From positions 1 to 21,893 of IMG/VR virus record IMGVR_UViG_3300032893_000295: a stretch of DNA of 21,893 nt. One strand, written 5' to 3'. Source of the stretch: a virus. Under the pieces are notes generated by a model. That model did not search any database. It was given only the letters and a program-made list of their open reading frames with translations, and was not told where the DNA came from. This document shows positions 2-13,073 of the stretch, piece by piece. The position numbers were made by a program, and so were the translations under genes. Each line of letters starts with the position of its first letter. Position 1 is the first letter of the stretch.

Positions 2-274
2 ATCGCTAGCCCGTACACGTATAACTCCTCGACCGGATGGAACTCAGCGACGCAGGCGTCTGCGCTATTGCTTGACACCAATAATCAACATCTTGGACCC
101 ACTTATCTGTCGAATAACTTTGGGGATTGGAGCGGATCAAAGGATGGGGCGATGTTTGAGGCTGGCGGCGGCATGACCTGCGCTGTCCCGGTCGTCTCGA
201 CTGGCAATTTTGACATGATTACTGGGAATTCGGCCAACGGCTTCCAAGTTGGCGCTCCAGGAACTGGATGTTGA
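2..274 (+). CDS. 3' end of an unidentified tail or extracellular-type protein (5' partial)
   Basis: The reading frame is open from the left edge of the window to a TGA at 272-274, giving about 90 C-terminal residues. The real start lies outside the window; an in-frame TTG at 68 is not needed as a start. The visible part is rich in Gly, Ser, Asn and Thr, with short beta-like stretches, and ends in GAPGTGC with a terminal cysteine. This composition resembles the larger protein that follows, whose start codon overlaps this gene's last 7 bases, so the two are translationally linked. It could be the end of a tail spike, fibre or other secreted beta-rich protein. No domain is recognisable, so the role is inferred from neighbours only. 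Confidence 0.6.
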
Positions 275-345
275 GAATGAAGGTTCTACGCGTTTTATCA
301 ACTATCGCGGCGCTTCTACTCGGGGCGATAGCGCCTGCATGCGCA
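268..345 (+). other. Sec signal peptide coding region
   Basis: The first 26 residues have two arginines and a lysine (R3, K5, R8), a hydrophobic stretch of Ile, Ala and Leu at about 9-22, and an A-C-A cleavage motif before T27. The lipobox pattern is poor because proline is at -2 relative to C25, so signal peptidase I is more likely than lipoprotein processing. This is read from the sequence; no predictor was run. Confidence 0.7.
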
Positions 346-3300
346 ACGTCGATTCTGACGACCGGCGCGGGCGGGGTCTTTATTGGTTCGGGTCCACTCT
401 CACCCCCCGCCATTACGCCACAGCTTTCGGCGCAGTTCGATATGAATCCGGCGAACGGCAGCAGCAACAACGCGCTGATCTTGCCAACGAACTCGACTTA
501 TTGGCCGTCAACGGTCACGAACTCCGCTTTCTGGACCTTCTCGGGTCGCACCGATTCCTACATGGAAACGGCGTCCAATTATGAATATTTGCTCTCGAAT
601 GGCAACAATTCGCCGCTTTATTTGATCGGGTATGTCGCTGGCAAGCCACAGTTTCTTTCTCAAGCTGTCTATGATGGAACGTCGTTCGGTTGGTGGTGGG
701 GTACACCTGGCGTCAATGTAAGCGCGAGCGGGCCGACTGCGCCTACGCTGACGAATTACAATACTGGTCTTTATCCCTGGACGGCGACTGGCGGCAACTG
801 CCAGCGTGAGCCGTCCGGCTATTACGGGCCGTCGGTCGGGATCGGGATCGTCGATCTCGGCTTCAACTGCGCAATGCAACCTGTCATCGTTCCTGCGGCG
901 ATTCCGGGGTTCGGATCGCAGCAGACGGTTGCAACTGGCGCAACGTCATGCGTCAGTAATTCTCCTGTCTTCGGGGAGATGACCGTCACGACGACGGTCG
1001 CTGTTAAGCATGGCGTTTATCCGAATGGCCAATTTACGCTTTCAGGTTTTAGTGGCGCAGGTAATACTGGCTATAATGCAACTTATAGGGCCACAACCGG
1101 AACGACTGGGACGACGCTGGTCGGCATCGCGTCCGGCTCCTGTCCGGCGAACAGCCCGGACACGTCCGGTGGCCTTGCTAATCCGGGGACTTCCTCTTCG
1201 GGCGGGACTGGCGCTTATGTGACCATGCCGTCGGCGGCCATCTTTAAGAGCAATTGGACCGGCGTTTCGATCAAGCAAAATCAGGAGTTCTGCGGTGTTG
1301 AAGGCGAATACGGCGCGGACTCACTGTTGCCCGGCCTTCAATATCTCCGCATCATTGATGCCAAAACAGGACTTGACCTTTACGGCTCGCCCGCGACTCC
1401 GTACACCCTGAACCAAGGCGCGTCCAATTTCACCGGCTACGTGTTTGGTCTTGGGGCCGTAGGCTCTGCGCCGCAGCAAGATACGTCCTTTCCGATCACC
1501 GCCTCGATCAGTGCAGCCGGGGTAATGAACGTTACTGCCGTTACGTTCACCGCGACTGCCTCGATTTCTGGCACGACCATGACCGTGACCGGCACGCCGA
1601 CGGGCATTCTTGCTACGGGGTTGTCGTTTACCGGCGCGGGCGTGACGGCGGGAACGTCAATCACCGCACTTGGCACAGGCACGGGCGGGGCGGGGACCTA
1701 TACCGTCAACAATAGCCAGACCATTTCGTCGGAGACGATGACGGTCAGCGGCGTGCTGGCGACCGGTATGACAATCACCGGCCCGTCGCTTCCGCCGACC
1801 ACCATTGCGTCATTCGGTTCGGGCTCGGGCGGGACCGGAACCTATAACCTCGCCGCGACTCAGGCAGGCGCGCTGCCGAGCGGGACCTATACCGCGCACA
1901 CCTATAACCCCGCGCTGGTCGTCACCGCGCTCAATTCCTACACGATCACGGCGGCGAGCTATTCGTCGAGCGGCAACGGGCAGGCGACCTTCACCACCTC
2001 CGCCGTGCATGGGCTCATCCCCGGCTCGATCTTCACCGTCTCGGGCGTCACGCCGAGCGGCTACAACGGCGTCTATATCGCGCTGGCGGGCACGGCGAAT
2101 TCGACGCTGGTCGGAACCACGATCACTAGTCCCGCCGTGCCGACGCTGGTCGCGCTCGCTAATCCGGGAACCTATTCTTCGGGTGGCACGGCTCAACCCA
2201 ATATCGTTCCTGGCTTGCTGATCGCCGGGACGACCGGACCCAATTCGTCGATCATGCCCTTCGGCGCGCTCGGATCGACCGGGACAGGTGGGACTGGAAC
2301 CTACGCGATCAACATCAATCAGCCGACCTGGACCTTCACCGGCGGCACCGGCGGCGTCGCTTCGACCTCGCTTGTGGTTACGGCGCAACCTGGCGGTTCC
2401 GGGACCAATTACGAATGGCTCGCCGCAGGTGTTGGCCTTACGGGTTCAGGTGTCAGCGCTGGAACGTATATTGCTACTTCTGTAACAGGTGGTAGCACTG
2501 GAACCTATATCCTCAATCAGAACGCAACTGTCACGGCTGGAACGACCCTGACCACGACCGGGAGCATTTGGACGTCGGGCGCGCCGGGCAACCTCTACGC
2601 CTTGGCGTCGGGCTTCTACTACCATCCGCAACCGAGCACGGCCGTCGCTTACGGCGGCGCTCCCACGGCGCATACGCAAGCGAGCCTTGGCAATTTCATC
2701 GCTACCCTTGGCGCGAAGACGTCCGGCGCTGGAACAAATAATCAGCAGTGGGGCGGAAGCGTCGCCAATTTCGGCACGCATTGGGGCGTCTTTCCTCAGG
2801 ATTCGACTGGCGCGCCGTCGCTTACTGCTTTGCAGGCGATCTGCAACAAAACGCAAGACTATCTTGCCTTCGACACAGTGAACAGTATCACTGCGCAAGC
2901 CCTGTACCGCATGGATGATGCGGGAACGTGGGGCGATTCTAGTGACGCCACGATCACCGGTTACATTTCAGGCGCAAGTGGAACAAGTGGCGGCACGGCC
3001 ACGCTCAATGTCTCTACGACCGTGTTTGGTTCGTTGGTTGGTTCTGGTACAAACTATCTAGCTGGACCGGGCCTCGCTGGTGGTGGGGGTAATTACGCAA
3101 CGCTCACGCTGACTGGTACAGCAGGATCAAGTTATACCATCACGTTTCCGGCTGGCGTAACATCGGCTAATCTTGGTTCTTCTGGCTCGCCGGTTCGCTT
3201 CTCGGTAGGCAAACAAAAACCGATGACTCTTACCGGTAATGGTTATATTAACGGCTATCTCACAACGAGCGGCGGTAGCGGGCCGTGCGCGACGCAAGCT

Positions 3301-6300
3301 TGCCTGCATGTGACCAGCTTCCAGACTTCGACTATGTCCTGGAACGGCTCGGCGCATTTCACTGGCACACTCGGCTCGGGCGGAACGCTTGTCGTTGATG
3401 CAACAACGGCGGGCACACCTGCGGTCAATCAGCTTTGCCTCGATTCAACCAACATCACCGGCGCGCCGATCGGGATTACTTCATACAGCGCGCCAAACGC
3501 GACAACAGCCGGTAGTTATTATTCATCTTTCGCCAGTTCGGGGTCACCGGACACCAATGTCGTTTGCGCTGCCTCTTGGGTGACGCCCAACCAAGTTCTC
3601 TCGGGGACGAGCCTGCCCTATCCGGTCATGATCACCGGCTACGCTAATGGCTCGATCGGCGGGCTTGGCGATTACCTCTTGTCCAATGCCTCGAACGGCG
3701 CGGTTGGCTCGTCCGGCTCGCCGGTCGCGATCACGCTCAGCGGCATCTTTGCCGGTCCCGCCGTTTCCTATGGCCCAGCGCTCACTATCAATGACCATGG
3801 ACCTGGCACAACTTTTGCGATTCCACCCGGCAGTTCGACTGGAAATATTGTTCTTACCGGAGCTTATAACACAACAAGCCTCGGCGGGACGCCGTCGGCG
3901 ATTCAGGCGCAGCTTTCAGCCACGCCTAACGGACCAGCTGTTTCTGGTTTCTCATGGGCGAATCTATCGCCACAGTCAATTAACAGCGGTAATTGGTCAG
4001 GAACGATTAGCAACGTACCTGCGGGGCAGTATTGGGTTAGCGTTCGACCCGCGAATGGTACGGCTTATGTGCAATTGCCAAATTTTATTAAAGTTGGGGC
4101 GGTGTTGGGTATTACTGGTGAGGGCACGATTGGGACCTGTACAGGTGCAACGGCGGGACAGAACGGAACGAGCAATTATGGTTTCCTGGGCGGCGATTTC
4201 TGGCTTTGGGCGGCGTCACCGATTTTCGGACCGCCGATCGTTGCTGACGCCAAGCCCTCGGCGATCCAGTCCGGTTACGTTAATAGATTCCAGGGCGGCG
4301 GGCAATATTCGATCCTGCCTGAGTGCCAACTAGCCATTGCGCAATCGTTTTGGAATCTGACCGGTGTCCCGATCTCCGAAGCTAATCTCGTGCGTAATGG
4401 CGTCGGCGTTTTCCTTCCTTTGCTCGGCAACCAGCCACAGACTCAAACGCTCGGCGTCGGTGACGGGACGTCGACGGAATGGTGTTCCTCATCGACCTAT
4501 TGCGCGAATAGCGCTAACGGTCCGCTCACTTATAATGCGGCTAATCTCTACGGGGCTTCGATTACCGGCTCTGTGGCAACTTCAGGCGGCGTCTCGACAT
4601 TGACGGTAACGGCGCTGACGGGTGTGCTTTCGCCCGGTCTCGTTCTCTCCGGGGCAAACGTAACGGGCTCACCGACGCTGGTCAATTGCGCTTCGCAGTG
4701 TAACTTCAATTCAACTACAGGTGGCACAGCCGTCAATTCAACTTGGACATTGAGCAGTAATCAGGGAACAATCAGTTCGCAGACGTTTACGGTTAAGCCT
4801 GCAGGTGGGGCTCCGCTTCAGCCGTTTCAAAATACAACAGGCGTGGGGCCGGTTTTCAGTTCATCCAATTATGCTATGCAGGCAATCAAGCCGGGCACAT
4901 TCTCAGTCAGTGTTGGCGGAACGAAGGTCTGCGACGATTCCGCCTTTACGTTCGATTACACGAAGTTCGGAGGAACATGCGCCGGGGCGGGCATCGCGTC
5001 TTCATTCGTCAATTACCAGACCGGCGCCTATCAGGTTACATTCTCGACGCCTCCGGCCAATGGCGCGGCGATCAATGCGACCTGGACGAACCTTATGTCC
5101 GACGACCAGACCGGCGTTAGCCCGAATTACTATCCAGAGCTTGTGGACTGGTTTGGCTTCCCGAATGACTCGGCGAGCGGGCTTTGGGCGGCGACGTTCG
5201 ACAAATTCCCGTCCGGCGCATCAGCCATCATTCACGGCGGCTGCGACGGTGACTGGACCGGAACCTCTACTGTTATTGGCTATCCGCTCTGGGCGATTAA
5301 TTATTCGCAGGTGGTCGCATACATCTATGGCACGAAACTTCCGGCGATGATTCCAGCGGCGTCGCCGCCCGCGCTCATCACGGCGACTTATTGGCGGGTC
5401 TTGGGCGCGGCGACTTTCGGCACGAGCAATAGCACCGGCATCTCGGTTTGTCAGCAATGGGCGCATGACGTTTCGGCATCCTCGCATTTCACCGGCTACA
5501 TTACATCGGGCGCGACGCCGACGCTTACTCTCACCGCGACCACGACTGATGAAATGTGGGAGGGTGAGGTTATCGGTTGCAATCCTTACAGTATAAGCTG
5601 TGGGATCACGCCAGGAACCCAGATCGTGGCGCTCACGAGTGGGTCATGGGGCACGAGCGGATCGGTCTATTCGCTCACTGCGCCGGTCCCTCAATCAACC
5701 ACGCGCTCGACGGCGAACGTCGTCGCCTATGGCTCGTCCGGCTCGCCGAAAGCGATGTTGAACGAAGTCTATTATGGCGATGTTCCGGCTAGCGGCGGGG
5801 CTCCGGGTTATTTTGGCGGTTCATGGGCGGATGTGGCGGTCTACGCGACCGACGTCGGGACGGGTCTGACTTCGCATCCGACTTCGGGCTTCAACAGCGG
5901 GCGGCGCATTGGCTCACGTATTGGCTCGCTTGCGGGTGGGTGGCTAAGCGGCGGGCGTACCCAGACGCTGGCTGCGCCGCCGACTGTTTCGCGCTCGACG
6001 ATCGGAGCATGCGACGGGTCGGCTACGGCCTCGCCCTGTTTCGACATCGGCTCAACTTACGGCGCATCGGCGACCGCGACATGGAGCGGCGCGACCGTCA
6101 CGATCACTGGCGGCCTCTCTGCCCATGCGCGGCCATTTGTAAACGGCATGTCGATCTCCTGCTCAGGCTGCAACACCGGCCTTGTAATTACCTCTCTCTC
6201 CGTACCGCCGACGCAATCGACGACGTCCGGTCAGGGACAAGTCGGCAACACTTTCACTTTCACCGCGAGCGGGACAATCGGCGGCTCGGGCTCGGGCACG

Positions 6301-7293
6301 ATCAGCGGCGGCTGCTCGGGAACGTCGGGGACCGGATCGAACTGCATCGACATCAATTTTGCGATTAATACCGGCGGGACTTACGGAACAACGGCCTCGC
6401 TCGCGACTTGTGGAGTGAATAATATCACTGGCGCGTCGGCGCAATATGCTGTATCAAGTGGTCGATGCATCGACAGCGGCATCGGATCACTCGTGCGCAA
6501 TTTACGCATCGGCACGAACGCCTGGATGGGCGCGGCTGACGGAAGTCTGGTTTCAACTGGTGACCTTTATGATGACGGAGCCGATCCGGTCGCGCTTAAC
6601 TGGATTCAGACTGGCGCATTCACATGCAATATTGTTGCGCCGACTGTGGTTCAGTGCGTCAAAGCGCCTGCGCGCTCATTGGGCGTGGTCACGGGAGTTG
6701 GCCAGTGGTTAACTGGCAGTACCTATATTTCTTACGGCAATGGAGCATGGGGCACGGCGCGTGAAGGATCGATTGTCGGCTATCCCGGTGGTCAAACATT
6801 CTCTATCACTAATGCCGGTTCAGGTTATACCAACAATACGACTGTACCTTGGGTCGGCACAGCGACCAGTGGAACATGCACTGCTGTCAATGGCGGCGGC
6901 TATCCAAAGCTTGATGTTTGGGTCTCGGGTGGAGCGATCGTTGATGCCTATCCGAGTTCAACGACAGTCACTTGGGCGAACTATCCAGTCGGCATTCGTG
7001 CAACTACAACGTGCACTTATCCAACGATCAGCAACACTAACTATCCGGGCATTGGGGCAGGATCGAGCGGGACGTTGGCAGGATTAACTGTCGGTCCATC
7101 TGAAGGATTGGCAGGCGTCGCGACCTACAACAGCGACAACAACATGACTGGAACATTTCTGTACGATAATTCAGGCGAGCCGGGCAATCCGCTTAACGCG
7201 GAATTCATGTGCGGGCCTGCGACGCAGTATTGCGAGCCGGGGCTTCAGGTTGTGCCATTCGGCATCTACTTTGGCTTGCAGGTGAGCGGATGA
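268..7293 (+). CDS. Giant secreted-type protein with SGNH (sialate O-acetylesterase-like) core and Gly/Thr repeats
   Basis: The product has 2341 residues. The start at 268 has AGGAA four bases upstream; ATG 277 is an alternative. Residues 1-26 look like a classical Sec signal peptide: basic start, hydrophobic core, then APACA before the predicted cut after A26. About 36 cysteines follow, often closely paired, which fits a disulfide-bonded exported protein. At least six degenerate repeats of 75-80 residues occur near 432-531, 690-767, 1432-1511, 1745-1824 and 1935-2015. A different repeat lies at 247-315 and 580-645, and an SSGSP motif recurs near 971, 1148 and 1822. Between about 1230 and 1900 the order of motifs resembles sialate O-acetylesterases: a beta-sandwich ending in [10 protein letters not shown], a GEGTI segment (1284-1288) where GQSNM is expected, a tGVP-type helix region, and a late SHP (H1870) followed by a GRR-type segment. 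The usual nucleophile serine is not visible, so activity is doubtful. It may modify or bind host surface polysaccharide. A signal peptide is odd for a virion protein. The stop overlaps the next start (ATGA). Confidence 0.6.
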
Positions 7294-8678
7294 TCGCACC
7301 GAGTCTTATGAGCAATGCGGGCGTGCCTTGGGGCGCGAGTAAATGCAAGCGGGCGCAGGACGCCGACCCGCTGCTCGATTATACATGGTGGAAACTCGAC
7401 GAGCTCATTCGCGGATGGGCACGGCGAGATGATTATGATCCGGAAGAAGGGCTTGATGCAGCAAAGCTTCCGGAACATTTATACCATATGACGCGAAAGA
7501 AAAATATTGAATCTATACAAAAGAAAGGTATCTTAGGTTGGCCTGATCCTATTATAAGCAACAGAAAGAACTACAATGGGGTCAATTTTGTAGAATCAGA
7601 AGAATCCGGTGGGGGTCGATTTAAACCAAATAAACCTGAAAATTATATGACAGTTAAAGTAAGCACTCGGAATTTAAATCCTGAAAATTTTGAAAGAAAA
7701 GTTCACGGATGGTGGCGTTATCGTGGCGATATTCCAGCAAAGCATATTGTTGATATTAGACCAACTTCACCAAGTCAGACCCAAGATGCTTTCCGCGAGA
7801 GCGAACACCCTCGCGGACAACCGGAGAACGCAGGGGAATTCGTTGCCAAGGGCGGACAGATCGGGGCTGGAAAGACTTTCAAGGCGCATAAGGCGGGGGA
7901 AGCCCTGCCGCCTCATATCGCAGGCTTAAAGATCCCCCCCGCTTGGCGCGATGTGCACTATGCGACGGACCCGAAGTCAGAGCTTTTGGTGACAGGGCGC
8001 GATGCTGTAGGGCGGCGGGTTGCGATCTATTCGGATGCGCATTGGGCGAAGGCGGCAGCGGCCAAGTTCGCGCGGATCAATGAGTTGAGCAAGAAGTTCA
8101 ACTCGATTAAACAGCAGAACGACAAGAATCGGAAGTCGCCAGATAGACGAGTTCGCGATCTCGCTGATTGTGTACACCTGATCATGACCATGGGCATCAG
8201 ACCCGGCTCGGAGACAGATACCAAGGCGAAAACCAAAGCTTATGGTGCGACTACACTTGAGGGTCAGCACGTGGTCGTCGATGGGGATCAGGTAAGCTTG
8301 CGCTTTGTTGGCAAGAAAGGTGTAAGCTTGAATTTGCTAGTCGATGATCCAGAAACGGCGCGTATGCTGCTCGTGCGTAAGCACTTGAGCGGGGATACGG
8401 GGCAACTTTTCGCTGTGAATGATGCTGCGCTCCGGGATTATGTGCACTCGTTTGATGGTGGTGGATTTAAAACAAAAGATTTTCGCACGTTGCTCGGAAC
8501 GCATTCAGCTGAAGCCGAGATGGCTAAGCTTCTGCCCCCAAAAGATGAAAAGAGCTATAAGCGATCGGTTATGGCAGTTGCTAAGGCAGTTGCGGCGCGA
8601 CTTGGGAATACGCCGACGATCGCGCTCCAATCGTACATTTCGCCTGCCGTCTTTGCACCGTGGAAGATCGCAGCATGA
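7290..8678 (+). CDS. ART-like domain fused to DNA topoisomerase IB
   Basis: The product has 462 residues. The start at 7290 overlaps the upstream stop as ATGA and has an AGGTGAG element before it; an upstream ATG-less extension to 7209 would lie inside the previous gene. Residues 62-158 form an ART-like or KptA-like domain, opening with LYHMT (64-68), then [11 protein letters not shown], and ending in a [11 protein letters not shown] segment (143-153). Residues 168-190 contain [17 protein letters not shown], a linker type common in phage head proteins. Residues 205-462 match bacterial and poxvirus-type topoisomerase IB, which nicks one DNA strand through a tyrosine and relaxes supercoils. The catalytic set appears complete: R304 in GIRPGSE, K342 in FVGKKG, R399 in KDFRT, N440 in LGNTP (Asn in place of the viral His, as in Deinococcus TopIB) and Y449 in SYISP. 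The ART-like segment is strikingly AT-rich. A topoisomerase inside a head operon may be packaged and injected or may act in packaging; both are inference. Confidence 0.8.
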
Positions 8679-8716
8679 ATAAAAACCCTCTGCCGTTCAG
8701 AAGCGTTGCGGCATGA
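8675..8716 (+). CDS. Possible 13-codon coupling mini-ORF
   Basis: ATG at 8675 overlaps the TGA of the topoisomerase gene (ATGA). The frame then reads [13 protein letters not shown] and stops at TGA 8714-8716, which overlaps the ATG of the DUF2213 gene (again ATGA). The downstream ATG at 8713 has no recognisable Shine-Dalgarno sequence (GTTGCGGC precedes it), so passage of ribosomes through this mini-ORF could couple the two genes. It may equally be chance. The peptide has no recognisable function. Confidence 0.35.
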   Translation: MNKNPLPFRSVAA

Positions 8717-9897
8717 ACAATCTTCCTGACGTTCGTTTTGGCAGGATCGACCCGGCGCAAGTCGATTGGCGAGATCTGCTCGACGATGAGCCGGATGACG
8801 ATGAGGAATTGGCGGAGACGCCGGATGACGTGATTGCGATGCTCGGTTTCGATCCACTGGACGAAATTGGGCAGGCGCAAGATGCTTGGTTTACTGGAAA
8901 TCTCCATTCTGTTGATCCGTCAAGGGAAATAATACCGGCAGAAGAAGGTTATCGTTATCACGGTACGAATCTTGAGAATTTGCACGGTATTGTTGAGCGT
9001 CGCGCACTGAGTGTGCACAAACCAAATTACGGCACAGAACAGAATGCTTGGCCTGATGGTGGACGCGAGAAGCGTGCTTACTTTACGCATGATCCGCAAA
9101 TTGCTCGTAATTTTTATCCTGAAGGTCATCCCGTTTTGCTTCGAGTGCCAGAATCAAAGCATGAGTTTCATAAAGAGAAGACTGGTGATACCTTTACCCG
9201 AAAGCCTGTGCCTTTACAACATATCGAAGCTTATCATGGGCAAGGACATTGGGTTCCTTTAAACGAAGCGGCACCGGGACAAGATCAGACGCTCGACGAG
9301 GCTTTCGCCTTTGACCGGAGCTCTGTCAGGTTCGAGGATCGCGACGGCCATCTGCATGTCGCGATGGCCAACATTAGCAAGGCGACGGTCAATCCGTACA
9401 TCGGTAGAGAGATTCCAGGCTGGCAGGAGCTCAAGCTCGATCCGAATAAAGTTTACCTGCTTCTGCGCGATCCGGAAGAATTGAAGAAGGGCGCGTCAAG
9501 TTTTGGTGGCAAGCCATTCCTCATTGAGCATCGCCCGCTCAATGCTAACGATCACCCCTATCGCAAGGTCATTGGCGCAATCCTAAAGCCTGTTAAGTTT
9601 AACGATCCATATTTACAGGCTCCACTTGTAGTTTGGCCAACGGAAGCCATTGATCTGATCAAGAGTGGTGAGCAGCGAGAAATCAGTTGTGGCTATCGCT
9701 ACACTCCGGACATGCGTCCAGGTAAGTATCAAGGTCAGCCTTACGACGGCGTGATGCGCGACATCATCGGCAACCACGTGACCCTCGTCGAGGAAGGGCG
9801 CGCGGGACCGGACGTCAATGCTCTGGTGATGGATGAGGCGATCGATGCTAGGCAATGGAAGCTGATTGAGCAAGCATTATTGGGATTGTACGCATGA
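8713..9897 (+). CDS. DUF2213 prohead protease-like protein with N-terminal ART-like domain
   Basis: The product has 394 residues. Residues 1-60 are acidic (DDEPDDDEE near 24-32). Residues 78-182 form an ART-like domain: YRYHGT (80-85), NLENLHGIVERRAL, RAYFTHDPQIARNF (121-134) and a beta-strand VLLRVPE. Residues 196-375 match DUF2213, a family found beside DUF2184 capsid genes and generally regarded as prohead maturation protease. Conserved blocks are GWQELKLDPNKVY, PFLIEHRPL (H273), EISCGYRYTP (S325) and GNHVTLVEEGRAGPD (H355). H273 or H355 with S325 could be the catalytic pair, but this is inference. The gene lies between the topoisomerase fusion and the scaffold gene, with ATGA overlaps on both sides. 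An ART-like domain in front of a DUF2213 protease is unusual to my knowledge. Such a domain could modify host proteins after injection, as T4 Alt does, or could be structural only. Confidence 0.8.
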   Translation: MNNLPDVRFGRIDPAQVDWRDLLDDEPDDDEELAETPDDVIAMLGFDPLDEIGQAQDAWFTGNLHSVDPSREIIPAEEGYRYHGTNLENLHGIVERRALSVHKPNYGTEQNAWPDGGREKRAYFTHDPQIARNFYPEGHPVLLRVPESKHEFHKEKTGDTFTRKPVPLQHIEAYHGQGHWVPLNEAAPGQDQTLDEAFAFDRSSVRFEDRDGHLHVAMANISKATVNPYIGREIPGWQELKLDPNKVYLLLRDPEELKKGASSFGGKPFLIEHRPLNANDHPYRKVIGAILKPVKFNDPYLQAPLVVWPTEAIDLIKSGEQREISCGYRYTPDMRPGKYQGQPYDGVMRDIIGNHVTLVEEGRAGPDVNALVMDEAIDARQWKLIEQALLGLYA

Positions 9898-10805
9898 CCA
9901 CACTTATCGAAGCCCTGAAAAAGAAATTCGGCACGCCCGCCGCTGCGCTTGCCGCGCTTGGTCTTGATGCGGCGTTACTTGAGGAGAAACCAATGACAAC
10001 GAAGGAAGCGGTGAGCGCCGCGCGCAAGGCTGCGATGGCGTTCGCAGAGGACGCAACGCCGGAAGGACTCAACGTCCTTCTCGAGGCGCTGAGTCAAGTC
10101 AAGCCTGCGGCTGTTGATCCAGCGGCAGGTGGAGGTGGTGGCATGGGCGATGCCCCTCCTGAGGAAGAGCCAACAGACGGTGGCGGAGAAGCCCCCCCGC
10201 TCGACGGTCCGGTTACACGTGAGTCGATCCGGGCTTTCTTGGAACAGGAACTCTCGCCCGAAGCTTTTGCTCAATTCGAGCAGATGCTAGCAGCTTTGTC
10301 CGATGAAGAAGAAGCGCCGCCTGATGACGGTATGGGCGGGGGGCCGGATGAAGATCAGCAGCAAGACGGTCTTGATGGAAGTGGCCCGCCGCCTTTTGAC
10401 GGTCGGCCTAGGATGCCAAACGAAGGAGCGCATGACAGCATGGCAAACGTCGGAATGGACGAGGCGACAGTCCAGAAAATGATCACCGCGTCCACCGACG
10501 CAGTGCGTCGCCAAGAGAAGGAACTCCGTCAGGCAGAGCGTGATGTTCGGCCTTACGTTGGTGACATTATCGGGTGCGACAGCGCCGAGCAGGTTTATCG
10601 GAAGGCGCTGGCGATTAAGGGCGTTGATCCGAAGCAGTTGGAACAGATCAAAGAAGTTCCAGCGCTGAAGATTTTGCTCAGTGCGCAGAAGCCCGCTGGC
10701 GCAGTCGAGAAAAAGTCTACCGCTGAAATGGCGACGGATGGTAAAGCAGCCAAGGGCTTTTTTGAAAGGTTCCCGGAGGCGGCTCGCATTGAGCATGCGA
10801 ACTAA
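9894..10805 (+). CDS. Acidic capsid scaffold protein (detached C-terminal part of a DUF2213-type protein)
   Basis: The product has 303 residues. The start overlaps the protease stop (ATGA). Residues 1-35 include FGTPAAALAALGLD. Residues 70-180 are low complexity and acidic, rich in Gly, Pro, Glu and Asp, and probably disordered. Residues 183-265 are helical, with a charged coil-like stretch (RRQEKELRQAERD) and then VRPYVGDIIGCDSAEQVYRKAL, a block I recall at the C-terminal end of DUF2213 proteins. In relatives the protease and this part are often one chain; here they are two genes. The protein probably nucleates prohead assembly and is then cleaved. A strong internal Shine-Dalgarno and ATG 9993 suggest a shorter form lacking 33 residues, and a second internal ATG at 10440 starts exactly at the conserved C-terminal domain. 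Confidence 0.7.
   Translation: MTTLIEALKKKFGTPAAALAALGLDAALLEEKPMTTKEAVSAARKAAMAFAEDATPEGLNVLLEALSQVKPAAVDPAAGGGGGMGDAPPEEEPTDGGGEAPPLDGPVTRESIRAFLEQELSPEAFAQFEQMLAALSDEEEAPPDDGMGGGPDEDQQQDGLDGSGPPPFDGRPRMPNEGAHDSMANVGMDEATVQKMITASTDAVRRQEKELRQAERDVRPYVGDIIGCDSAEQVYRKALAIKGVDPKQLEQIKEVPALKILLSAQKPAGAVEKKSTAEMATDGKAAKGFFERFPEAARIEHAN
9981..9995 (+). promoter_or_regulatory. Internal ribosome binding site and in-frame start in the scaffold gene
   Basis: GAGGAGA at 9981-9987 is followed by a 5-base spacer and an ATG at 9993, in frame with the scaffold gene at codon 34. It is a much better initiation site than the upstream start at 9894, which has no Shine-Dalgarno and relies on ATGA coupling. 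Phage scaffold genes nested inside larger head genes are known, such as lambda Nu3 within C. Confidence 0.5.
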
Positions 10806-10837
10806 GCCCCTTCCTCTTTTATAAGGAGTATATGGTT

Positions 10838-11854
10838 ATGACTGCAGTTGGTGGTATCCAAACCTCTGTCGGCGGCAAGATGGCTCCCGGCATTGAGGGC
10901 GCATGGGCCTCGACAAATCCGCGATCGAGCTATGTGGCTGGGCCGGGTGGTCTGGTTGCAGGTTCAGCGGGTCTGACGGTTGGTCGTTTTGCTTGGGTTG
11001 ATTGGGCGCAGATGGATGCGGATAACGCTCCTGCTGTTGCCAATAACTTTGGCAGCGGTAATCCGAGTGGCTTCTTTGCTTTCGAGATGCAAGCTTTGAT
11101 TACTGGCTTCCTCGGTAGCGCCAGCATGCTTGCCGTGGCCGGGCAAGGTGTTACGCTCATGACGGATGGTGACTATTGGGTCAAGAACTATGGCTCAAAT
11201 TATGCCACCCCCGGCATGTATTGCTACGCGGATTTGGCGACTGGCAAGCCCTCGTTTGCGAGCGGTGTTAACGCGGCGAATGTCATTTCGCCGAGCTCTG
11301 CTTATGTGACAGCGCAGACGGGTAAAACGGTCACCGGTTACATTATCGACAATATCCTGTATGTGACGACAGCGACCAACCCGATTTATCGGGGCTCGAC
11401 GCTGACGGCAGGTACCGGTGTGACTGTTGGAGCCAAGGTCAAGGATCAGTTGACCTCGACCGAAACGGGTGGGGCGCTCAATGGCAAGGGCACCTATTCG
11501 CTCGATACGGGTGAGATGACGGCCTATAGCGCTGGGTCGCCGGGCACTATCACCTTCAGTTATGGCCAGTTGACGATTACCACTTTGGCCTCGGGGACGG
11601 TGGTATTGGGCGCGATGCTTGGCACGTCGGCGAGCGATACGGTTCCTGCCAACGATGCGGTGACGGATTTCATCACCGGCACAGGCGGCACTGGGAATTA
11701 CGCCGTCAGTAGCGCTACAGCGATCGCGACTTCGGGTGCTCCGTCTTCAACACTCACGTTGACGACCAATGTCGTGACGGTTTGGACAGCACAGTCGGGC
11801 GGTGCAGCAGGAGAACTGATTAAGATCGCAACCCCTCGCCAGAGGCTCATGTAA
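10838..11854 (+). CDS. Capsid decoration or cement protein with C-terminal Gly/Thr repeats
   Basis: AAGGAG at 10823-10828 sits 9 bases before ATG 10838, giving 338 residues; an ATG at 10832 is possible but only 3 bases away. Residues 1-150 carry the pattern TSVGGKMAPGIEGAWAS, GPGGLVAGSAGLTVGRFAW, and a later GDYWVKN. This pattern is seen in structural cement proteins that sit between scaffold and major capsid genes. From about residue 163 the protein turns into two copies (163-230 and 240-321) of the same type of repeat that fills the giant protein upstream, including VTGYI, LTVT-like strands, GTGGTGNYAVSS and GAMLG. These may be surface-exposed Ig-like or beta-strand units. The family assignment is by position and pattern; the function is inferred. 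Confidence 0.65.
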   Translation: MTAVGGIQTSVGGKMAPGIEGAWASTNPRSSYVAGPGGLVAGSAGLTVGRFAWVDWAQMDADNAPAVANNFGSGNPSGFFAFEMQALITGFLGSASMLAVAGQGVTLMTDGDYWVKNYGSNYATPGMYCYADLATGKPSFASGVNAANVISPSSAYVTAQTGKTVTGYIIDNILYVTTATNPIYRGSTLTAGTGVTVGAKVKDQLTSTETGGALNGKGTYSLDTGEMTAYSAGSPGTITFSYGQLTITTLASGTVVLGAMLGTSASDTVPANDAVTDFITGTGGTGNYAVSSATAIATSGAPSSTLTLTTNVVTVWTAQSGGAAGELIKIATPRQRLM

Positions 11855-11873: not shown

Positions 11874-11894
11874 GCGGTGGAGTAAAATAAAATG
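11874..11894 (+). promoter_or_regulatory. Ribosome binding region of the major capsid gene
   Basis: GGTGGAG at 11877-11883 precedes ATG 11892 by 8 bases of A-rich sequence. Just upstream, CGCC (11864-11867) and GGCG (11873-11876) could form a short hairpin with a 5-base loop, leaving the Shine-Dalgarno partly exposed. The A-rich spacer fits the high expression expected of a capsid gene. Confidence 0.5.
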
Positions 11895-13073
11895 ACAGTG
11901 GTTCCGAAGTTTCGCACTTTCGAGGAGGCTCGTCAAGCCTTCATGGAAGACCGGTATATGTTGGAAGATGCGGGTTTTAGCTGGCATGGCTATACTCCGC
12001 ATACTTACATTCCGGAGAGTTGGAAGCGCGATTATCGTCTCGCAGTGGACGAGCTCAGCGGCGCGCTCCAGAAGATGTATGGTCAGGGTTTTGGTCAGGA
12101 CGCGGCGATTACACCAGTAAGTCTTGATCCCAATGCTGGTGTGCCTTGGGCCTTGACCAACATGATTGACCCGACAATCTTCAAGATTCTGTTCGCCCCG
12201 GTTGTCATGGCCGAAATTCTCGGTGAACAGAAGAAGGGTACTTGGACCGATCGCACGATCCAGTTCCCTGTGATCGAGCACTCGGGCGAAGTTGAGACCT
12301 ACGGTGATAATAACGAAGGTGGCAATGCCAACGTCACCATCAACTTTCCCGGTCGGCAAGCGTACATGATGCAGACCGTCATCCGCTATGGCGATTTGGA
12401 AGTTGACATGGCGGGACTGGCCAAGATCAACTACGTCTCGGAGCTTGGCGTGAGTGCCGCCAACGCGCTGAATCGGTATCTGAACCTGATTTACGCTTAT
12501 GGCGTAGCCGGGCTTCAGAATTATGGCACGTTGAATGATCCGCATTTGCCTGCAGCACTCAGCCCGGCCACCAAGGCTGCGTATGGGACGACGGGCACGA
12601 ATGCTTGGTATTATAACGGAGCACCTAACGCGACGCCGAATGAAGTTTACAACGACATCTTGGCGATGTACTACGCGTTGGTTAACAACACGCTTGGTCT
12701 CGTGAATGAGGATACACCGCTGATGTTGGCGCTGTCTCCACAGTCGCAGACCGCGTTGAAGTTCGTCAACTCGTTCAACGTGAATGTGACGACGCTGCTC
12801 AAGGATAACTTTAAGAACCTGACGATTAAGACTGCGCCGCAATATGCAGTCAAATCGGCGGCCAATCCGGAGGGTATTGCAGCGGGCAACTTGATGCAGT
12901 TGATGGCTCCGGAGCTTGATGGGCAGAAGCAGTCATTCTGCGCATATAACGAGAAGCTGCGAAGCTTCCCGATCGTTCGCGGGCTCTCCAATTATAAGCA
13001 GAAGCAGATTTCTGGCGCTTGGGGCGCGGTTTTCCGCTCTACTGTCGGCGTCCAGCAGATGATTGGAGTCTGA
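11892..13073 (+). CDS. Major capsid protein (DUF2184 family)
   Basis: The product has 393 residues and matches the DUF2184 type of HK97-fold capsid protein. Recognisable parts are the N-terminal FRTFEEARQAFMEDRYMLEDAG region, VPWALTNMIDP (about 92-102), the long conserved stretch TWTDRTIQFPVIEHSGEVETYGDNNEGG (about 117-144), QTVIRYGDLEVD and a C-terminal RSTVGVQQMIGV. The length fits the family. It forms the icosahedral shell and is assembled on the scaffold encoded two genes upstream. It lies directly after the decoration gene, and a short stem follows its stop codon. The opposite strand is open for 327 codons here, but only as a shadow of this gene. Confidence 0.85.
   Translation: MTVVPKFRTFEEARQAFMEDRYMLEDAGFSWHGYTPHTYIPESWKRDYRLAVDELSGALQKMYGQGFGQDAAITPVSLDPNAGVPWALTNMIDPTIFKILFAPVVMAEILGEQKKGTWTDRTIQFPVIEHSGEVETYGDNNEGGNANVTINFPGRQAYMMQTVIRYGDLEVDMAGLAKINYVSELGVSAANALNRYLNLIYAYGVAGLQNYGTLNDPHLPAALSPATKAAYGTTGTNAWYYNGAPNATPNEVYNDILAMYYALVNNTLGLVNEDTPLMLALSPQSQTALKFVNSFNVNVTTLLKDNFKNLTIKTAPQYAVKSAANPEGIAAGNLMQLMAPELDGQKQSFCAYNEKLRSFPIVRGLSNYKQKQISGAWGAVFRSTVGVQQMIGV

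What the first reader, a model, noticed from the sequence alone, without database searches (positions are those of the whole stretch)
7290..8678. ART-like domain fused to a complete topoisomerase IB inside a phage head operon
The protein has a full TopIB catalytic set (R304, K342, R399, N440, Y449) and an ART-like module at 62-158, joined by an EHPRG-type head-protein linker. Topoisomerase IB is uncommon in phages and is not a usual head-gene neighbour. Such a protein could be packaged and injected to relax entering DNA while modifying a host target, or could act on the packaging substrate. The head location and linker favour a virion role, but this is inference.
Basis: partly seen in the sequence, partly recalled or inferred. 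Interest (0 to 1): 0.8.

Follow-up and report, generated by a model that had tools for sequence, protein, structure and literature searches.

The report
Phage head-linked type IB topoisomerase
This virus gene joins a complete DNA-relaxing enzyme (topoisomerase IB) to a short tag that marks cargo of phage heads, and dozens of related uncultured phages weld the same enzyme to their DNA-entry portal or neighbouring head proteins, so many phages probably carry a topoisomerase inside the particle, much as poxviruses do.

Summary
The 462-aa protein at 7290-8678 carries a full topoisomerase IB domain (res ~205-460; Topoisom_I 2.4e-21; high-confidence model closest to Deinococcus and variola TopIB). 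All five catalytic residues are conserved and invariant in 45 phage TopIBs. The ART-like label for res 62-158 has only weak support: a partial KptA-like profile match, no usable fold model. A scan with the TopIB domain alone found 70 IMG/VR contigs. In 62 distinct ones TopIB lies next to, or is fused to, portal, MuF, head protease or capsid genes in at least 57; portal was always upstream or fused, capsid always downstream. Fusions to portals and to MuF arose repeatedly. Directly before TopIB sits a conserved linker, [WF]xE..HPR...G[KE]F..GGG (44/59 versus 0/53 bacterial TopIBs). The same linker joins Nudix, Zeta-toxin, GNAT and ART cargo in such phages. Best reading: a head-packaged cargo TopIB, ejected with the genome to manage its supercoiling, analogous to the encapsidated poxvirus TopIB: a new enzyme class for the known polyvalent/head-effector scheme. 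I found no report of it in the open-access library searched. Virion presence and activity are not shown.

The parts
7290..8678 (+). Gene of the 462-aa protein (P0001); ATG overlaps the stop of the upstream gene (ATGA)
7473..7763 (+). Res 62-158, possible KptA/ART-like domain (LYHMT..N..SI..GI ... [10 protein letters not shown]); weakly supported
   Evidence: no structure support
7785..7859 (+). Res 166-190, head-cargo linker [25 protein letters not shown]
   Evidence: invariant [12 protein letters not shown] in 4 TopIB relatives; motif 44/59 vs 0/53 bacterial; census
7902..8675 (+). Res 205-462, topoisomerase IB (N-terminal DNA-binding part + catalytic core); Arg304, Lys342, Arg399, Asn440, nucleophile Tyr449 (codon 8634-8636)
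8713..9897 (+). DUF2213 head maturation protease with an N-terminal YHGT-type domain (phrog_3147)
9894..10805 (+). C-terminal part of head protease / scaffold-like protein
10832..11854 (+). Minor head protein (XM1 gp53 family)
11892..13073 (+). Major head protein (phrog_264)

Best explanation
The protein is a head-packaged cargo protein whose working part is an active type IB topoisomerase. It is made late with the head proteins, brought into the procapsid through the HPRG...GEF..GG linker (or, in relatives, by direct fusion to the portal or MuF), and leaves with the DNA at infection. There it breaks and reseals one strand through Tyr449, without ATP or metal, to relieve supercoils created by the first rounds of transcription or replication of the incoming genome, before phage proteins are made. 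The N-terminal ART-like domain would be a second, exchangeable effector; relatives carry Nudix in the same position. Shown: TopIB fold, catalytic set, linker, head-operon location, recurrent portal/MuF fusions. Inferred: packaging, release from the linker, ejection, and the supercoiling role.
For: Catalytic pentad invariant in 45 phage TopIBs; structure and fold. In 62 distinct TopIB loci, 131 recognised head genes all lie on the same strand as TopIB; portal upstream or fused 37/37, capsid downstream 23/23. Most of the remainder have other portal/MuF families next to or in the TopIB gene. 20 portal fusions and 6 MuF fusions among the tree rows; the portal label needs at least 8 changes on the TopIB tree and MuF at least 2. 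The linker is shared with cargo whose substrates are cytoplasmic: Nudix, Zeta toxin, GNAT, ART-PolyVal, ADPrib_exo_Tox. TopIB is single-copy in 48/49 records, so the head copy is the phage's only recognised TopIB. Precedent: vaccinia encapsidates a TopIB that acts mainly in early transcription (PMC12188299 and its references).
Against: No virion proteomics or activity data. Portal-fused copies, if not cleaved, could not be ejected. All relatives are uncultivated contigs. Freshly injected linear DNA is not strongly constrained, so the need for relaxation is assumed. No cleavage site in the linker was tested.
Confidence: 0.55

Rival explanations
1. The TopIB works during DNA packaging or storage, not after ejection: held at the portal on the capsid-lumen side, it relieves twist built up while DNA is pumped in and coiled.
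For: Repeated C-terminal fusion to the portal of several families. Portal C-termini generally face the capsid interior (own knowledge, not tested here).
Against: More than half of the relatives are not fused to the portal. The same linker and the same portals carry Nudix, InPase and Zeta-toxin cargo that have no packaging substrate. Most tailed phages package without a TopIB.
Confidence: 0.2
2. Host-directed effector: after injection the TopIB relaxes or damages the host chromosome, or disturbs a supercoiling-dependent defence or regulation, together with the ART-like partner.
For: Its company is effector domains typical of polyvalent proteins (PMC5512222). The TopIB clade is distinct from bacterial enzymes.
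Against: No immunity or toxicity evidence; relaxing host DNA would also act on phage DNA; no specificity module recognised.
Confidence: 0.15
3. An ordinary late cytoplasmic phage topoisomerase that happens to lie in the head operon; the linker is a passive, recombination-spread spacer.
For: Jumbo phages carry standalone TopIBs outside head modules. Linker copies within one contig share codons slightly more than expected (0.494 vs 0.418).
Against: Head-module position in at least 57 of 62 loci and many independent portal/MuF fusions are hard to explain by chance.
Confidence: 0.1

Closest known systems
Polyvalent proteins / head-packaged effectors (Iyer et al. 2017, PMC5512222; ARTs in heads, PMC9503650)
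   Same: Multi-domain protein in a head gene neighbourhood; portal and MuF fusions; ART, Nudix and InPase partners
   Different: TopIB is not mentioned as a domain in the main text; the word linker does not occur in that text, and the shared HPR..GF..GGG linker is not described in the passages read
Bacterial topoisomerase IB (Deinococcus radiodurans TopIB, PDB 2f4q)
   Same: Fold, N-terminal domain, catalytic pentad
   Different: Phage forms lie apart from bacterial ones in the tree, 30-36% identity, and carry head-linker/portal/MuF extensions; the linker is absent from bacterial forms (0/53)
Encapsidated poxvirus TopIB (vaccinia H6R; variola PDB 2h7f)
   Same: TopIB fold; virus-encoded; predicted particle-borne, early role
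   Different: Not fused to virion proteins; unrelated virus type; virion presence of the phage form is only inferred
Jumbo-phage TopIB (Lu11, PaBG; phrog_23460; PMC7824862)
   Same: Phage TopIB
   Different: Standalone ~560 aa proteins, no head genes annotated in the stretches viewed; separate, distant branch
MuF polymorphic toxins (PMC5576092)
   Same: Effector carried by a portal-adjacent head protein; some relatives here are MuF-TopIB fusions
   Different: The window protein has no MuF domain; TopIB is not mentioned in that paper

Membership tests
Topoisomerase IB | Catalytic Arg-Lys-Arg-Asn(His)-Tyr set | tested here: met
   R304, K342, R399, N440, Y449; invariant in 45 sequences
Topoisomerase IB | TopIB fold rather than tyrosine recombinase | tested here: met
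   Foldseek TopIB 4e-15, XerH 0.017
Topoisomerase IB | Metal- and ATP-independent relaxation activity | not testable with these tools
   needs purified protein
Polyvalent / head-packaged effector protein | Two or more disparate domains in one protein encoded among virion genes | tested here: inconclusive
   TopIB is certain and the gene lies in the head operon, but the second (ART-like) domain is weak in the window protein; clearer in relatives (Nudix-TopIB, InPase-TopIB)
Polyvalent / head-packaged effector protein | Packaged in the head and injected | not testable with these tools
   only context and fusions
KptA/ART superfamily (res 62-158) | Significant profile match over the domain | tested here: inconclusive
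   hhalign E 2.3e-4, prob 45, above shuffles; Pfam KptA 0.15, DUF7002 0.0097 over ~20 residues only
KptA/ART superfamily (res 62-158) | ART fold and NAD-binding residues | tested here: inconclusive
   no usable model
MuF polymorphic toxin | MuF domain in the protein | tested here: not met
   no MuF match in P0001; present in some relatives
Jumbo-phage TopIB | Groups with the Lu11/PaBG branch | tested here: not met
   jumbo enzymes form their own branch, 100/99

The most novel reading that the evidence does not exclude
The [WF]xE..HPR...G[KE]F..GGG linker is a general address/release tag by which many uncultured tailed phages load interchangeable enzymes, including TopIB, into the head. It would be read by a phage-specific partner (for example the head protease), and the packaged TopIB would give the incoming genome control of its own supercoiling independent of host gyrase.
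Probability: 0.3. Interest if true: 0.82.

Novelty: new variant of a known kind. Interest (0 to 1): 0.64.

Why it matters
If true, tailed phages repeatedly evolved particle-borne TopIB, in parallel with poxviruses, so control of DNA topology would be a very early need of infection. The shared linker would be a simple tool for loading proteins into phage heads and a handle for finding unknown head-packaged effectors. Portal-TopIB fusions also allow a direct test of whether packaged DNA needs torsional relief.

Tried and rejected
ART homologues: the ART region has no relative in IMG/VR, GenBank phages (best E 6) or among the fetched loci; the DUF2213 ART-like region likewise. PDB search of the ART region: none. 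DarT profile: not above shuffles; DUF7002 profile: marginal, built from few sequences. A first hhalign run used wrongly picked frames and is discarded. AF2 of the ART region alone: pLDDT 47, not used. Integrase/tyrosine recombinase reading: rejected by fold. Bacterial prophages: a genome-contig scan gave only TopIBs at 36% identity or less among the best 80, no close prophage copy. Linker in GenBank phages: no match for the HPRG form, one weak match (E 0.6) for the DEPRD form in a Nocardia phage capsid maturation protease; such short queries have low power. Literature: no open-access paper found that describes portal-fused or head-linked TopIB.

Full report
What is there. The window is a 21,893-base IMG/VR virus record carrying a contractile-tail head/tail operon on the + strand: DUF2213 head-maturation protease, minor head protein, major head protein (phrog_264), neck/connector proteins, tail sheath and tape measure. 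The gene at 7290-8678 lies just upstream of the protease gene, between a 2341-aa ORF with a signal-peptide-like start and the head genes. Its ATG overlaps the upstream stop.

TopIB. Residues ~205-462 match Pfam Topoisom_I (2.4e-21) and Top1B_N_bact (1.1e-7) and Deinococcus TopIB 2f4q (6e-25). In an alignment with 44 phage relatives the five catalytic residues are invariant. The AF2 model has pLDDT above 90 over nearly the whole domain, and Foldseek puts it with Deinococcus and variola TopIB (4e-15, 2e-14), well ahead of tyrosine recombinases (0.017). The observation of a complete TopIB is solid.

ART-like part. Residues 62-158 show a KptA/DarT-like start (LYHMT..N..SI..GI) and an IPAKHI end. 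The only quantitative support is hhalign against ten KptA proteins fetched: score 31.2 against a shuffle maximum of 17.3, E 2.3e-4, probability 45. Pfam hits are sub-threshold and cover about 20 residues. No structure could be obtained. 'KptA/ART-like' is a reasonable lead, not a result.

Relatives. A scan of viral contigs with the TopIB domain alone (no linker) found 70 contigs, 33-67% identical; TopIBs of the GTDB genome collection reach only 36%. The tree separates those bacterial TopIBs (one side of a branch, 96/92) and jumbo-phage TopIBs (100/99) from the viral ones. The window's nearest relative is L024, a portal-TopIB fusion at 67% identity. GenBank phages contain only the distant standalone jumbo type and one Bacteroides phage. 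Three of the four sequences in the scan alignment were first found through linker peptides, so some bias toward linker-bearing TopIBs is possible.

Head association. Of 62 distinct TopIB loci, 42 have portal, MuF, protease, capsid or large-terminase genes recognised within the fetched flanks by models built from a few seeds. All 131 such genes are on the same strand, with portal upstream or fused in 37/37 and capsid downstream in 23/23. PHROG scans add 15 more loci with portals or MuF-type head proteins of other families (phrog_21, 113, 213, 12, 104, 2662 and others) next to or inside the TopIB gene, so at least 57 of 62. Portal-TopIB fusions (e.g. L004/L084: Phage_portal_3 - linker - TopIB) and MuF-TopIB fusions (L052, L063, L081, L086, L088, L093) are scattered over the tree: the portal label needs 13 changes (at least 8 forced by well-supported branches), MuF 4 (at least 2). 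These count gains and losses together. Each phage record searched has a single TopIB (48/49; the one without a hit is L025's record, where the scan had found it).

Linker. Immediately before TopIB sits [WF]xE..HPR...G[KEQ][FW]..GGG, or variants such as DEPRDESGKWTSGGG and GHEFHGNQWTEGGG. By a pattern chosen after looking at the sequences it is present in 44 of 59 viral TopIB genes, against 0.2 expected from shuffles and 0 of 53 bacterial TopIBs. The same linker occurs beside Zeta-toxin, Nudix, GNAT, ART-PolyVal, ADPrib_exo_Tox and DUF7178 domains in portal, protease and other fusions; one L003/L056 polyprotein has four copies. Copies within one contig resemble each other more than expected (mean similarity 0.535 vs 0.398 in permutations, 0 of 1000 as high), while codon identity at shared residues is only slightly above chance (0.494 vs 0.418). 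That fits mostly protein-level co-evolution with a phage-specific partner plus some spread by duplication. Common descent within a genome is not excluded.

Mechanism. Cargo sharing this linker acts on cytoplasmic substrates, and head-packaged ARTs/effectors are an established idea (PMC5512222, PMC9503650). The simplest reading is that TopIB is loaded in the head and delivered with the DNA, to handle supercoiling of the incoming genome. Vaccinia gives a working precedent: it encapsidates a type I topoisomerase that functions mainly in early transcription (PMC12188299 and references cited there). A role at the portal during packaging is the main rival.

Novelty. TopIB in phages is known from jumbo phages as a standalone enzyme (PMC7824862). 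I found no description of head-linked or portal-fused TopIB in the open-access library; subscription papers and supplementary domain tables were not checked. I file it as a new variant of the head-packaged polyvalent-effector kind.

Noticed in passing
window 8713-9897 (res ~75-190): The head protease gene next door also has an N-terminal YHGT-type, possibly ART-like domain (phrog_3147, function unknown) fused to DUF2213; none of the 47 other TopIB phage records searched has a phrog_3147 match.
   Followed up: partly
window 268-7293: A 2341-aa ORF with a signal-peptide-like start and many '[11 protein letters not shown]'-type repeats lies just upstream of the TopIB gene; no Pfam match. Similar repeats appear in the C-terminal half of the minor head protein at 10832-11854.
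   Followed up: no
L068:7254-8813: InPase - short DUF7211 motif (HGIKGMKWGV) - TopIB: a different short motif takes the place of the HPR linker, suggesting several interchangeable head-cargo tags.
   Followed up: no
L006:6896-12835; L014:7464-10217: Phage portal proteins fused through the same linker to Zeta-toxin kinase domains; L006 is 1979 aa with at least four linker copies.
   Followed up: partly
L019:3294-8576, L021:4003-8250: DUF7178 domains follow linkers in protease and portal fusions: an uncharacterised, apparently common head-cargo domain.
   Followed up: no
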